From assembly GCA_030639395.1 (NCBI GenBank), contig DAOWCW010000001.1, positions 1-26,243 of the forward strand: a stretch of DNA of 26,243 nucleotides. The letters run 5' to 3'. The notes under the pieces were generated by a model. It searched no databases, was not told the DNA's origin, and saw nothing but the letters and a program-made list of their open reading frames with translations. This DNA comes from an archaeon. Its GTDB lineage: Archaea > Nanoarchaeota > Nanoarchaeia > Pacearchaeales > GW2011-AR1. Each line of letters opens with the position of its first letter. The stretch's first letter is position 1. Positions 5,668 through 20,828 of the stretch are shown here, piece by piece. The translations under genes and the position numbers were made by a program.

Positions 5668-5718
5668 AGGATTATTTGATTAATTTGATTGATACTCCTG
5701 GGCACGTTGATTTTGGTG
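5668..5718 (+). repeat. Exact 51-nt copy of an internal EF-2 gene segment
   Basis: These 51 bases are identical to 6958-7008, the part of the EF-2 gene encoding EDYLINLIDTPGHVDFGG with the GTPase DTPGH motif. Similarity stops abruptly on both sides. The copy is in the same orientation 1.29 kb upstream, in the intergenic region before the SGNH gene. Lack of any mismatch implies recent copying or continuing gene conversion. Confidence 0.9.
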
Positions 5719-6707: not shown

Positions 6708-8879
6708 ATGGCAGATAAGATGACTGAGAAGGTTAGGGAATTACAAAAAGACCCAACACATATTCGAAATATTGCAATTTGCGCCCATATTGATCATGGG
6801 AAGACGACGTTTTCTGATAATCTTTTGGCTGGTGCTGGGATGATGAGTGAGGATTTGGCTGGGAAGGCTAGGACTTTGGATTTTCATGACGATGAGGCAG
6901 AGAGAGGGATTACTATTGATTCGGCTTCGGTTTCTATGGTTCATAAAGTGAATGACGAGGATTATTTGATTAATTTGATTGATACTCCTGGGCACGTTGA
7001 TTTTGGTGGGGACGTTACTCGGGCGATGAGGGCGGTTGATGGTGCGATTGTTTTATCTTGTGCTAGCGAGGGGATTATGCCTCAGACTGAGACTGTTTTA
7101 AGGCAGGCTTTGAAGGAGAGAGTTCGTCCTATTTTGTTTATTAATAAGGTTGATAGATTGATTAGAGAGGTTAAGTTGACTCCTGAGGAAATGCAGAAGA
7201 GGTTTGTTGATATTATTGATTCTGTGAATAAGTTGATTGCTGAGATTGCTGAGCCTGAGTATAAACAAAAGTGGCAGGTTAATGTTGCTGATGGGACTGT
7301 TGCATTTGGTAGTGCGTTTCACAATTGGGCTTTGTCCATTCCTTATATGCAGGAAAATAAGATTAGTTTTAAGGAAGTTATTGATGCTTACGAAGCTGGC
7401 GGTGAGGAGTATAAGATTTTGGCTAAGAAGGCTCCTATTCATGAGGTTGTTCTTGGTATGGTTATTAATAATCATCCGGATCCTGTGACTGCTCAGGGAT
7501 ATAGGATTCCTAAGATTTGGCATGGTGATTTGGAAAGTGATGCTGGAAAGGATTTTATTAATTGCAATATTGATGGAGAGGTTGCGTTTGTTCCAATTAA
7601 GATTGTTGTTGACCCGCATGCTGGAGAGGTTGCGGCTGGTAGGTTATTTGGTGGAACGATTAAGCAGGGTGATGAGTTGTATATGAATATTGCGAAGACT
7701 AAGGTTCGGGCTCAGCAGGTTTCGATTTACAAGGGGGCTTCGCGGGTTCAGCTTGATGAGGTTGTTGCTGGGAATATTGTTGGTATTGTTGGATTGAAGG
7801 ATGTTGTTGTTGGGGAGACTGTTTCTAGGAATCCAATTGAGCCGTTTGAGGCGATTAGTCATTTGTTTGAACCCGTTGTTACAAAATCTATTAGCGCCAA
7901 GAGAACTGCTGATTTGCCGAAGTTGATTGAGATTTTGAGACAGGTTGGTAAGGAGGATCCGTCCTTGAGGATTGAGATTAATGAGGAGACTGGAGAGTCA
8001 TTGATGTCTGGGATGGGTGAGTTGCATTTGGAGATTATTGAAAATAGGATTAAGACTGAGAAGGGCTTGGAGATTGAGATGGGTCCACCGATTATTGTTT
8101 ATCGTGAGTCGATTGCGAAGAAGAGTGATATTGCTGTTGGGCGTTCTCCGAATAAGCATAATGATTTTTTTATGGTCGTTGAACCTTTGGAAGATAATAT
8201 TATTGAGGCTATTGCGGATGGTACTTTGCCATCTGGTAGAATTAAGAAGAAAGATAAGGCTTTGGATGAGACTTTAGTTGGCTTGGGAATTAGTAGGGAT
8301 GAGGCTGGGCAGTATAGGAATATTTACAAGGGTTCGGTTTTTCAAGATAGAACTAAAGGTATTGTTCAGATTGGAGAGGTTATCGAGTTGTTACTTGATG
8401 CGTTTGAGCAGGTTATGGATGCTGGTCCGTTGGCACGAGAGCCTTGTCATAAGATGAAGGTTTCGGTTGTTGATATGAAGTTGCATGAGGATTCGATTCA
8501 CCGTGGTCCTGCGCAGGTTTATCCGGCTGTTCGAGATGCGATTAAGGAAGGTTTTGCTAAGGCTGTCCCTGTTATTTTTGAGCCGGTTCAGGTTCATCAG
8601 ATTGAGGCGCCTACTGATTTTATGGGTGCTGTGACTTCGCTGGTTTCTGGGAAAAGAGGGACTTTGGTTGATGTGCAGCAAGATGAGACAGGTGTTACAG
8701 TTAGGGCTGAGTTGCCGGTTTCGGAGATGATTGGATGGACTAGTGATTTGAGAAGTGCGACTGAGGGTAGAGGGGTTTCTAGCTTGGTTAGTCAGACTTT
8801 TAAGAAGTTGCCTACGGACATGCAGGCTAAGGTTATTGCGCAGATTAGGTCTCGGAAAGGATTAGCCGAGAATCAGTAA
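6708..8879 (+). CDS. fusA: Translation elongation factor EF-2
   Basis: This is the ribosomal translocase GTPase. At 723 residues it is normal for archaeal EF-2. Visible motifs: G1 AHIDHGKTT (25-33), RGITID switch I, G3 DTPGH (92-96), G4 NKVD (146-149), and in domain IV LHEDSIHRGPAQ with His598 as the diphthamide site. The leaderless start at 6708 follows the TATA box by 31 nt. Codons are strongly G+T-biased (TTG, GTT, GAG), typical of the well-expressed genes here. Part of its G domain is duplicated at 5668-5718, and its stop codon begins a long hairpin. Confidence 0.98.
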   Translation: MADKMTEKVRELQKDPTHIRNIAICAHIDHGKTTFSDNLLAGAGMMSEDLAGKARTLDFHDDEAERGITIDSASVSMVHKVNDEDYLINLIDTPGHVDFGGDVTRAMRAVDGAIVLSCASEGIMPQTETVLRQALKERVRPILFINKVDRLIREVKLTPEEMQKRFVDIIDSVNKLIAEIAEPEYKQKWQVNVADGTVAFGSAFHNWALSIPYMQENKISFKEVIDAYEAGGEEYKILAKKAPIHEVVLGMVINNHPDPVTAQGYRIPKIWHGDLESDAGKDFINCNIDGEVAFVPIKIVVDPHAGEVAAGRLFGGTIKQGDELYMNIAKTKVRAQQVSIYKGASRVQLDEVVAGNIVGIVGLKDVVVGETVSRNPIEPFEAISHLFEPVVTKSISAKRTADLPKLIEILRQVGKEDPSLRIEINEETGESLMSGMGELHLEIIENRIKTEKGLEIEMGPPIIVYRESIAKKSDIAVGRSPNKHNDFFMVVEPLEDNIIEAIADGTLPSGRIKKKDKALDETLVGLGISRDEAGQYRNIYKGSVFQDRTKGIVQIGEVIELLLDAFEQVMDAGPLAREPCHKMKVSVVDMKLHEDSIHRGPAQVYPAVRDAIKEGFAKAVPVIFEPVQVHQIEAPTDFMGAVTSLVSGKRGTLVDVQQDETGVTVRAELPVSEMIGWTSDLRSATEGRGVSSLVSQTFKKLPTDMQAKVIAQIRSRKGLAENQ

Positions 8880-16709: not shown

Positions 16710-16757
16710 TTTATTTATTTACTATAACTTTAAATTACATATGTTCTTTTGTTTCTT

Positions 16758-17702
16758 ATGAGTACAATTAGATTTGGGCCTGGTGGGCTTGGACCGGTTA
16801 AGGATGCGGTGAAAAATTTGGAGAGGTTTGCTGAACTTGGTCTTCGGGCTTGTGAGGTTGAGTTTACCTATGGTCCGTATATTAAGAATGAGGATGATGC
16901 TAGAAAGATTGGAAAGAGAGCGAAGGAGCTTGGGATTTATTTGTCGATTCATGCGCCGTATTTTGTGAATTTGAATTCTAAGGAGAAGGTGAAGATTGAG
17001 GCATCGAAGAAAAGGGTTTTGAAATGTTGTGAGGTTGCGTCGTGGCTTGGGGCAAAGAGGGTTGTTTTTCATCCTGGGTTTTATAGTGGGATGTCTAGCG
17101 AGGAGGCGAGTGTTAAGATTAAAGAGGGAATTATTGAGATGATGGAAGTTGTCGAGAAGGAGGGTTGGGGTGTTGAGATTTGTCCGGAGTTGATGGGGAA
17201 GGTGAATGTGTTTGGGTCAATTGATGAGGTTTGTGATTTGGTTCGTGAGACTGGGTGTGGGTTTTGTATTGATGTTGCTCATGTCTTGGCGAGGTATGGG
17301 AAGTATGAGTTTAGGAAGATTGAGGAGGCGTTTCCGATGAAGACGTGGCATGTCCATTTTTCTGGAATTGAATATGGAGAAAAGGGAGAAAAGAGGCATT
17401 TGGTTGTTGAGAGGAAAGAATGGGAAGAGGTTTTGGGTTGGCTGAAGGGTTTGAGGACACGTAATAGTGTACCCTCTAAAATGGGCACCGATATGCCGTC
17501 TTCATCGGGCGCACGTAATAGTGTACCTTCTAAAATGGGCACTGGTGTGCCGTCTTCATCGGGCGCACGTAATAGTGTACCCTCTAAATTGGGCACTGCT
17601 GTGCCGTCTTCATCGGGCAAGGATGTGGTTTTAATTTGCGAGAGTCCGGATCCGGTTGGGGATTCTGTTGCTGGGTTGAGGATTTGGGAAGAGCTTAGGT
17701 AA
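16758..17702 (+). CDS. nfo: Endonuclease IV-family AP endonuclease/TIM-barrel protein with a repeat insertion
   Basis: The 314-residue protein has the endonuclease IV TIM-barrel metal ligands in order: CEVEFTYG (Glu), IHAPYFVNL (His), VVFHPGFYSG (His), VEICPELMGK (Glu), FCIDVAHVLAR (Asp, His), WHVHFSG (His) and LICESPDP (Glu). Such enzymes cleave DNA at abasic sites. Start 16758 (MSTIRFGPGG) follows the TATA element at 16729 by 29 nt. Between GWLKGLR and KDVVLICESP there is a 54-residue insertion of three 18-residue units (ARNSVPSKMGT-x-x-PSSSG), where relatives have only a few residues. The insertion lies before the last catalytic strand, presumably in a surface loop, so the enzyme may still be active. 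Confidence 0.85.
   Translation: MSTIRFGPGGLGPVKDAVKNLERFAELGLRACEVEFTYGPYIKNEDDARKIGKRAKELGIYLSIHAPYFVNLNSKEKVKIEASKKRVLKCCEVASWLGAKRVVFHPGFYSGMSSEEASVKIKEGIIEMMEVVEKEGWGVEICPELMGKVNVFGSIDEVCDLVRETGCGFCIDVAHVLARYGKYEFRKIEEAFPMKTWHVHFSGIEYGEKGEKRHLVVERKEWEEVLGWLKGLRTRNSVPSKMGTDMPSSSGARNSVPSKMGTGVPSSSGARNSVPSKLGTAVPSSSGKDVVLICESPDPVGDSVAGLRIWEELR
17459..17620 (+). repeat. Three in-frame 54-bp tandem repeats within the endonuclease IV-like gene
   Basis: Units start at 17459, 17513 and 17567, each 54 bp, with a few substitutions. Each encodes (A/T)RNSVPSK(M/L)GTxxPSSSG. Each unit contains AGTGTACCC and GGGCAC(T) arms around an 8-9 nt loop, and a second hairpin GGCAC-n4-GTGCC (clear in copy 3). 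The 54-bp length keeps frame. The minus strand is also open through the repeats. Confidence 0.95.
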
Positions 17703-20126: not shown

Positions 20127-20828
20127 ATGAGATTGATTTTTGTTGGGGCTCAGGGTTCTGGGAAAGGAACACAGGCGAAGATGGTTGCGAAGAGGTTTGG
20201 GCTTTGTCATATTTCTAGTGGGAATTTGCTTCGTGAGGTAGTTGCTTCACGAGATGACGGAGGGCAGATGACGGAGGATAGGAAGAGGCTTGGGAAAGAG
20301 GTTAGTGAGATTATGAGTAGGGGAGGGTTGGTTTCTGATGAGTTGATTATTCGTATTTTGAAGGAGAGATTAAAGGAGGCGGATTGTGAGAAGGGTTTTA
20401 TTCTTGATGGGTTTCCGAGGAATGTAAGTCAGGCTGAGAAGCTGAAAGGGATTGGTGCACTCAAGAGTGTGCCCTCTGCCTCTGGGGCATTCACTGATAC
20501 GGACAAGGAGGATAATATTGATAAGGTTATTGAGATTGAGATTAGCGACAAGGAAGCTGTTAGGAGGGTTTGTGGTAGGAGGAATTGTCTGAAGTGTGGA
20601 GCGATTTATAATGTGAATAGTTTGAGACCTAGAACTGAGGGTATTTGTGATGAATGTGGAGGAGAGTTGACGAGGAGAGAAGATGATAGTGAGGATGCTT
20701 TGATAGAGAGGTTGAAGATTTACCATGATGAAACGGAGAAGATTTTGAGAATGTATGATGTTGTTAGGATTAATGGAGAGCAAAGTATTGAGAAGGTGTT
20801 TGGGGATATCTTGCAAATTTTAGGTTAG
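20127..20828 (+). CDS. adk: Adenylate kinase with zinc LID and a palindromic insertion
   Basis: It catalyses ATP + AMP to 2 ADP. P-loop GAQGSGKGT (7-15), AMP-binding SSGNLLR and GFPRNVSQAE, VRRVCGRR at the LID entry, and Cys144, Cys147, Cys164 and Cys167 forming a four-Cys zinc LID (bacterial-type long adk, not the archaeal trimeric kind). At 233 residues it is longer than usual because of an extra segment around 109-130 (ALKSVPSASGAFTDTDKED) between the AMP region and IDKVIEIEIS. The start lies 30 nt from TTTTAAATAG (20097-20106), so it is leaderless. Its stop overlaps the end of the convergent protease gene by 9 nt. Confidence 0.95.
   Translation: MRLIFVGAQGSGKGTQAKMVAKRFGLCHISSGNLLREVVASRDDGGQMTEDRKRLGKEVSEIMSRGGLVSDELIIRILKERLKEADCEKGFILDGFPRNVSQAEKLKGIGALKSVPSASGAFTDTDKEDNIDKVIEIEISDKEAVRRVCGRRNCLKCGAIYNVNSLRPRTEGICDECGGELTRREDDSEDALIERLKIYHDETEKILRMYDVVRINGEQSIEKVFGDILQILG
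20466..20495 (+). repeat. In-frame palindromic insert in adk
   Basis: AGTG-T-GCCC, a 10-nt loop, then GGGC-ATT-CACT. Both arm pairs are complementary. AGTGTRCCCTCT and GGGCA are shared with the endonuclease IV-like gene repeats, and both encode SVPSxxG. Confidence 0.75.

What the first reader, a model, noticed from the sequence alone, without database searches (positions are those of the whole stretch)
17459..17620. Palindromic repeats inserted in frame into an endonuclease IV-like enzyme
Three 54-bp units encode 18-residue repeats (RNSVPSKMGT-x-x-PSSSG) placed between a helix and the last catalytic strand, where family members have only a short loop. Each unit holds inverted-repeat arms and has a length divisible by three. 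This is the behaviour of Rickettsia palindromic elements, which spread into coding genes without breaking them; I know of no described archaeal counterpart. Both strands stay open through the repeats.
Basis: partly seen in the sequence, partly recalled or inferred. Interest (0 to 1): 0.78.

Follow-up and report, generated by a model that had tools for sequence, protein, structure and literature searches.

The report
Hairpin DNA parasite inside archaeal genes
A 54-letter hairpin-forming DNA repeat in an archaeal enzyme gene belongs to a scattered family of tiny insertions that sit in frame inside many genes of one group of uncultured small-genome archaea, much like the known "selfish" repeats of Rickettsia.

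Summary
Observation confirmed: three 54-bp units (17457-17618) lie in frame in an endonuclease-IV-like TIM-barrel gene, before the last strand. The gene lacks them in 9 of the 9 closest genomes. This is no private loop expansion: a covariance model of the unit finds 36 copies in 11 of 200 genomes of the order. Thirty lie in genes or open frames (PheS, PheT, ArgS, ABCE1, TsaD, TatD, ribosomal proteins, topoisomerases and others), all sense strand, all one reading frame; six, all in one genome, are intergenic and carry stops. Insertion-free orthologues show 54 bp added just 5' of an AA dinucleotide, without target duplication. The apical stem covaries at synonymous third positions and rare codons are fixed: nucleic acid, not peptide, is conserved. 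Smaller relatives are scattered in the same clade; one is nested in a long unit. Best reading: a mobile double-hairpin element tolerated as disordered loops, working like Rickettsia palindromic elements (RPEs) and intragenic REPs. "No archaeal counterpart" is wrong: protein-coding palindromes were reported in Methanocaldococcus jannaschii in 2005. New: these families, their small modular build, AA target and single frame. The mobiliser is unknown; no movement was observed.

The parts
16758..17702 (+). Host gene: xylose-isomerase-like TIM barrel (PF01261), endonuclease-IV-like, 314 aa
   Evidence: PF01261, 1e-28; best solved relative: probable endonuclease 4, E 2.8e-7
17457..17510 (+). Element unit 1 (54 bp; TRNSVPSKMGTDMPSSSG)
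   Evidence: 73.5 bits, but the unit helped build R1; R3, built without it, E 9.7e-8
17511..17564 (+). Element unit 2 (54 bp; ARNSVPSKMGTGVPSSSG)
   Evidence: 49.7 bits, helped build R1; R3 E 0.19, weak
17565..17618 (+). Element unit 3 (54 bp; ARNSVPSKLGTAVPSSSG), the intact hairpin form
   Evidence: (84 bits, helped build R1); (R3 E 1.4e-11)
17565..17578 (+). Hairpin 1 of unit 3 (GCAC-GTAATA-GTGT)
17580..17617 (+). Hairpin 2 of unit 3: CCC/GGG closing stem, conserved internal loop TCTAAA../..TTCATC, covarying apical stem GGCAC/GTGCC
17619..17620 (+). AA of the host Lys codon at which the array stops; the 9 empty orthologous sites printed have AA here
20457..20491 (+). Probable short relative (two hairpins; ALKSVPSASGAF) inside the adenylate kinase gene 20127-20828, in a stretch absent from orthologues
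   Evidence: weak by models (R1 E 0.027; R2 E 0.091; R3 E 0.056); alignment gap to orthologues

Best explanation
The repeats are three tandem copies of a small, non-autonomous, palindromic mobile element of one clade of Pacearchaeota-like archaea. The element is a 54- or 60-bp double hairpin (smaller relatives from 24 bp). It lands 5' of an AA dinucleotide, in genes in front of a Lys or Asn codon, with no target duplication. Its length is a multiple of three and its stop-free frame reads (A/T)RNSVPSKxGTxVPSSSG, so it adds a short disordered Ser/Pro/Gly-rich stretch to the protein and is tolerated even in core enzymes. SHOWN: dispersal, empty sites, sequence and stem conservation beyond the peptide, one sense frame in all 30 coding long copies, stops in the six intergenic ones. 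INFERRED: that it moves as DNA (perhaps as a folded single strand cut by an HUH-type enzyme), that selection removes insertions in other frames, that it is selfish rather than useful, and that the inserts are translated. In the window one copy landed in the loop before the last strand and then grew to three by tandem duplication (inference).
For: Dispersal: same peptide in RadA, PheS, a DUF87 ATPase and, by Pfam accession (names recalled), RNase P p30, S2, S13 and a CCA-adding enzyme; BLAST of the array hit 7 of 11 genomes (one, G010, is a 21-bp chance match); model R1 hit 11 of 200 order genomes and 6 of 378 class genomes, all six from the same clade. Coding: 30 of 36 copies in a frame-0 ORF of at least 100 aa; 6 have stops, all in G114. 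23 of the 30 host ORFs have a Pfam family. Independent model: R3, built only from the six intergenic copies, recovers 11 known coding copies at E <= 1e-4 in 762 kb of G001/G006 and the window array. Empty sites: PheS G006 GTTGAG|54 bp|AAGAAA against G007 GTGGAA|AAGAAG; AA at the site in 8 of 8 empty PheS, 5 of 5 empty ABCE1-NBD1 and 9 of 9 empty TIM sequences printed. ABCE1 carries the long form at three different places in different species. Nesting: GGGAACT|24 bp|AAAGTTC, a short element inside a long one, again 5' of AA. Covariation: all 5 apical pairs have two-sided changes, 0 of 500 shuffles reach it. pN/pS 0.76; CCC fixed in 19 of 21 copies though 1 of 75 Pro codons in the host genes sampled. 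Insert modelled as disordered.
Against: No movement has been observed and no mobiliser is identified: Y1 transposase PF01797 is in 5 of 12 genomes searched but not in G001, the genome with most long copies, and no element lies in the 8 Y1 loci looked at; reverse transcriptase in 2 of 13. One orientation and frame in 30 of 30 is stronger than simple tolerance predicts, since two other frames are open. R1 was built from coding copies only, 24 of the 36 matches among them, so the 30:6 ratio leans to coding. Some sites are shared by distant species (PheS and UvrD in G001 and G006), which could be old insertions with many losses. At the G001 PheS site the flank is one codon shorter than in relatives, so that site is not a clean addition. 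AA lies inside the models, so only the empty sites test it, and these are few sites seen in related rows. Hairpin 1 fails in 5-6 of 27 copies in this register.
Confidence: 0.88

Rival explanations
1. Ordinary minisatellite or loop expansion private to this gene.
For: It is a clean 54-bp tandem array here, and other in-frame simple repeats exist in a relative (G112).
Against: The same unit, mostly single, is in many unrelated genes of related genomes with a covarying stem.
Confidence: 0.02
2. The element acts on RNA: it integrates through RNA (hence always sense) or is spliced out of, or bypassed in, the mRNA, like the bypassed hairpins (byps) of yeast mitochondria (recalled).
For: All 30 coding long copies are sense; an internal loop and covarying stem are conserved in the sense RNA; synonymous codons are fixed.
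Against: Coding copies keep frame 0 free of stops and have lengths divisible by three, while the six intergenic copies have stops, which removal or bypass would not require; no reverse transcriptase match in 11 of 13 genomes, assemblies possibly incomplete.
Confidence: 0.05
3. A co-opted module: a useful tag or regulatory hairpin maintained by selection in core genes.
For: Same sites in different species (PheS G001/G006, UvrD G001/G006, PheT G007/G115, PF04013 methyltransferase G007/G009); core genes look over-represented by eye, not tested.
Against: Presence varies: 2 of 12 usable PheS rows (13 genomes, one row dropped) carry it and 10 are empty; pN/pS 0.76; sites in ABCE1 differ between species.
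Confidence: 0.05

Closest known systems
Rickettsia palindromic elements (RPE) and the Wolbachia counterparts (WPE)
   Same: Palindromic DNA with an open frame, found in frame in housekeeping genes and between genes, in solvent-exposed parts of proteins (passages).
   Different: RPEs are 105-146 bp; ours 54/60 bp and smaller. RPE-4 and RPE-6 carry a terminal CGTC tag; ours has RTAC between two hairpins. No sequence kinship was tested.
Palindromic repetitive elements with coding potential of Methanocaldococcus jannaschii (Suyama, Lathe and Bork 2005)
   Same: Archaeal palindromic repeats fused in frame into protein genes, as two other papers describe them.
   Different: The paper is not held, so sequence, length and target could not be compared; a different archaeal lineage.
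Intragenic GTAG/CGTC-tagged REPs with RAYT transposases (PMC3733652)
   Same: 20-40 bp palindromes, often dimers, some inside ORFs including repair genes; marked by a tetranucleotide (passages).
   Different: Tag here is RTAC and lies between the hairpins; no element was found in the 8 Y1 transposase loci examined.
Double-hairpin elements of mitochondria
   Same: Very short mobile units made of two hairpins (recalled; only a search listing seen).
   Different: Organellar; no common sequence known to me (recalled).

Membership tests
Rickettsia palindromic elements (RPE) | Palindromic repeat dispersed in frame in unrelated protein genes and also between genes | tested here: met
   30 copies in frame-0 ORFs and 6 intergenic of 36
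Rickettsia palindromic elements (RPE) | Length 105-146 bp with terminal inverted repeats | tested here: not met
   54 or 60 bp, two successive hairpins; length range
Rickettsia palindromic elements (RPE) | Host is a member of the Rickettsiales | tested here: not met
   Closest loci are titled Pacearchaeota, Nanoarchaeota or archaeon; whether Rickettsiales hold this element was not searched
Rickettsia palindromic elements (RPE) | Insert lies in surface-exposed, flexible parts | tested here: met
   One case modelled: residues 236-283 pLDDT < 50 in a loop
GTAG REP with RAYT | Unpaired GTAG tetranucleotide at one end of the hairpin | tested here: not met
   RTAC between hairpins instead
GTAG REP with RAYT | Y1 transposase gene flanked by the repeats | tested here: inconclusive
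   PF01797 in 5 of 12 genomes, 18 matches; in the 8 loci fetched (1.5-kb flanks) R2 gave one match at E 0.61 and R1 none
M. jannaschii coding palindromes | Sequence or structural kinship with that element | not tested
   The search found only two papers that cite it
Insertion sequence or MITE with target-site duplication | Target-site duplication | tested here: not met
   PheS G006, ABCE1 G001 and G008 sites differ from empty ones by 54 bp with no repeat of the flank

The most novel reading that the evidence does not exclude
A mobile structured RNA: the element's conserved internal loop and covarying stem act in the transcript, and it enters genes through RNA, sense strand only, which would explain why 30 of 30 coding copies share one strand and frame; it would be a splicing-free, translated RNA parasite of archaeal mRNAs.
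Probability: 0.08. Interest if true: 0.88.

Novelty: new variant of a known kind. Interest (0 to 1): 0.58.

Why it matters
Protein-coding palindromes are chiefly known from Rickettsia and Wolbachia, with one archaeal report. A separate, much smaller and modular family in a clade of archaea whose assemblies are 0.5-1.2 Mb suggests that such repeats arise repeatedly in small genomes and can add new loops to essential proteins. With 13 related genomes, empty sites, a nested copy and both coding and stop-bearing copies, the system makes the open question of how such elements move, and why only one frame is used, directly testable.

Tried and rejected
Own-genome search: none held. A peptide regular expression over the 80 orthologue loci (1.19 Mb) found nothing; the element sits elsewhere in those genomes. 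Rfam: no family at gathering threshold in the window; two chance-level snoRNA matches in five carrier loci. A kink-turn-like reading of the antisense strand was considered and dropped as untestable here. Viral contigs: 0 matches to two patterns. A home-made hairpin scan of three contigs found an excess only in G006:C28 (12 against 0-4 in five shuffles); G001:C3 (4 against 1-7) and G001:C1 (2 against 0-3) showed none, as it misses the long form. Mobiliser: Y1 transposase and reverse transcriptase do not track the element. The third protein search gave only the query, one near relative and G001's TsaD-type protein.

Dropped rows: G010's 21-bp BLAST match; the G005 row of the PheS alignment, where the script took the neighbouring PheT; the G003 row of the Fe-S site print, a wrong place; the L158 fold used a wrong coordinate and shows no element. 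The L107, L108 and L109 matches and the nested L106 were left out of R1's alignment A2. For one search, 60 of the 65 R2 matches were given; the 5 left out overlap long-form copies. Of the 60, one had no tag; 44 lie in an ORF of at least 120 aa, 30 of them in frame 0 and 14 in other frames (9 antisense, 5 sense). So the single-frame rule is clean for the long form but not shown for the weak short matches, many of which may be chance. A weaker long relative in G006 (C28:36723, R3 E 2.6e-4) is not in a frame-0 gene.

Searches for prior description found none for this clade; most subscription papers and all preprints are outside that library. Papers: PMC10969869, PMC2229807, PMC3767692, PMC3733652, PMC2996958 seen as passages; the papers as a listing only; Ogata 2002 not held; Suyama 2005 seen only as a citation.

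Full report
1. What is in the window. The ORF 16749-17702 (+) encodes a TIM-barrel protein (PF01261). Among the 120 relatives listed, those with a name are called deoxyribonuclease IV (or -4) or TIM barrel protein, several from Pacearchaeota; the NCBI deoxyribonuclease IV models match below their cut-offs. Three 54-bp units occupy 17457-17618. GC skew falls from about 0.66 before the array to 0.07 over it. AlphaFold places the insert as a disordered loop (pLDDT < 50, residues 236-283) between helix 219-230 and the last strand 289-294 of a well-modelled barrel.

2. The insertion is local at this site. In an alignment of 24 homologues, P0001 (97% identical) and P0044 carry it at this position; P0044 has a single 18-residue copy. 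P0056 and P0118 end in TRNGVPSN and TRNGVSSR, as if an element overlies the stop codon (inference). The orthologous genes of the nine closest genome loci (L001-L009) are empty, with GA(T/C)|AA(A/G) at the site; in the window the codon before the array also differs. In P0001 the three units are the same peptide except for the first two residues of unit 1, and differ from the window's units, so the array turns over.

3. It is a dispersed family. The peptide occurs in RadA, PheS, a DUF87 ATPase and others; by Pfam accession, names recalled, also in RNase P p30 (twice), S2, S13 and a CCA-adding enzyme. BLAST of the 162-bp array in 11 genomes holding TIM orthologues gave matches in 7, one of them a 21-bp chance match; in the family of G001, 9 of 181. 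Model R1, built from 27 coding copies, gave 11 of 180 family genomes, 11 of 200 order genomes and 6 of 378 class genomes, all from the same clade. In an ABCE1 tree of 23 rows the 11 carriers fall in a group of 13 (support 91/87, moderate); its other two members are G002, which holds a worn copy in ABCE1, and G004; the label needs 3 changes on the tree.

4. Where copies sit. Of 36 R1 matches, 30 lie in a frame-0 ORF of at least 100 aa on the sense strand. In 29 this is the longest ORF; for the thirtieth (L099) an antisense ORF is longer, but the sense protein resembles that of L106 by eye. Six, all in G114, have stops in frame 0. Of the 30 host ORFs, 23 have a Pfam family: PheS, PheT, ArgS, a UvrD-type helicase, ABCE1, a PF04013 methyltransferase, TsaD, TatD, S3, L31e, L32e, TFIIE-alpha, a GTPase, two topoisomerase types, TrmB; 7 have none, among them L098, which resembles the p30-like P0122. 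The frames open in the 27 aligned copies are sense 0 (27), sense +1 (26) and one antisense frame (27); a second antisense frame is open in 2. So the use of one frame is not forced by stops alone. R1's sources were coding copies, and 24 of the 36 matches were among them; as a control, model R3, built from the six intergenic copies only, was run on 762 kb of G001 and G006. It found 11 matches at E <= 1e-4, all known coding copies, and one at 2.6e-4 that is not in a frame-0 gene. It also finds the window array (E 1.4e-11 for unit 3).

5. Empty sites. Filled and empty PheS differ by exactly 54 bp (G006 GTTGAG|54|AAGAAA; G007 GTGGAA|AAGAAG). The empty sequences printed have AA at the site: PheS 8 of 8, ABCE1-NBD1 5 of 5, TIM 9 of 9; the Fe-S site of ABCE1 also, in 4 of 4 usable empty rows. 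These are related rows of few sites. There is no target duplication. At the G001 PheS site the 20-residue insert is followed by one residue fewer than in relatives, so that one is not a clean addition. ABCE1 has the long form at the Fe-S site in G008 (worn in G002), in NBD1 in G001 and in NBD2 in G116. The PheS site is filled in G001 and G006 and empty in the 10 other usable rows. At the UvrD site G001 and G006 carry elements with different first hairpins, which favours independent insertion at a shared spot (inference).

6. What is conserved. The structure is hairpin 1 (RCAC-GTAATA-GTGT, or another short stem), then CCC/GGG enclosing a conserved internal loop and a variable apical stem. All five apical pairs have two-sided changes; 93.8% of cells pair; no shuffle of 500 reaches the observed values, and sliding the partners weakens the signal (the shuffles do not keep relatedness). 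Hairpin 1 pairs in 85.2% of cells and the CCC/GGG stem hardly varies. The strongest covarying pair (A-T 14, C-G 10, three other types once each) joins the third bases of the GGN and GTN codons, so the peptide does not explain it. Among 21 copies of 54 bp, pN/pS is 0.76; CCC is fixed in 19 of 21 though it is 1 of 75 proline codons in the window's host genes sampled, and TCT and GGC are nearly fixed. So the nucleic acid is conserved and the peptide looks like a by-product that stays open; recent spread would add to this. Single window units fold only modestly better than shuffles.

7. A superfamily. In G112 an 81-bp copy is a long element with 24 bp inserted in its apical loop, GGGAACT|24 bp|AAAGTTC, just 5' of AA. 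The piece resembles a short type seen elsewhere (APSVPLEGK). Model R2, from four short elements, matches 13 of 13 clade genomes and 1 of 13 other genomes at E <= 0.1, several of the 13 only weakly (four copies by construction). Types seen include APxGVPSEEGK (30 bp plus the Lys codon), PQVPSEEG(N/K), a 60-bp APKGVPPAQ.ASA..DK.GN type and APSVPLEGK. They share RTACC between two hairpins. Of 60 short matches examined, 44 lie in an ORF of at least 120 aa, 30 of them in frame 0. In G114 some intergenic long copies are set in longer hairpin mosaics with a shared tail.

8. How it probably works. A short folded element inserts 5' of AA without duplicating the target. This resembles single-strand transposition by HUH (Y1) enzymes, as proposed for REPs (PMC3733652; the target behaviour of that enzyme class is recalled). 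However, Y1 genes are in 5 of 12 genomes searched and not in the richest long-form carrier G001, and the 8 Y1 loci examined hold no element. A mobiliser that is lost, missing from incomplete assemblies, or of another kind is possible. The all-sense, single-frame pattern could come from selection against other reading frames or from a strand-specific route; I cannot separate these.

9. Known relatives. RPEs are 105-146 bp and in frame in protein genes (PMC2229807). REPs inside ORFs, including repair genes, are described in PMC3733652. Archaeal coding palindromes are recorded for M. jannaschii (Suyama 2005, cited in PMC2229807 and PMC2996958). So the kind is known, and known in an archaeon; the families here, their size, module plan and target rule were not found in print by the searches.

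Noticed in passing
window 20457-20491 (+), adenylate kinase gene 20127-20828: A likely short relative of the element (GCAC..GTGTGCCC..GGGGC; ALKSVPSASGAF) in a stretch missing from adenylate kinases of related genomes; model scores alone are weak.
   Followed up: partly
window 5668-5718 and 6958-7008: A 51-bp stretch of the EF-2-like gene (DYLINLIDTPGHVDFG) is repeated with 100% identity 1.29 kb upstream, in a small ORF that otherwise does not look like EF-2: a recent partial duplication or an assembly artefact.
   Followed up: partly
L288 and L277 (genome G112): PheS and ABCE1 of this genome carry other in-frame simple-repeat expansions (for example runs of GTCGGCA and GGGGTTTC) absent from the aligned relatives.
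   Followed up: no
L108, L109, L142 (genome G114): Intergenic copies share a downstream hairpin tail (GAGAAACGAAGTTTCTC-like), suggesting larger mosaic repeats or a non-coding RNA.
   Followed up: no
L106:1377-1796 (-), genome G112: A short element nested in the apical loop of a long element, at an AA site.
   Followed up: yes
L254:16723-16781 (+), L224 and L220: A further related form (GTACCC..TTAGGAGATTC..GAATCTC..ACGGGCAAA): one copy outside a frame-0 gene in G006, one in a 359-aa frame-0 ORF in G006, one with stops in G008.
   Followed up: partly
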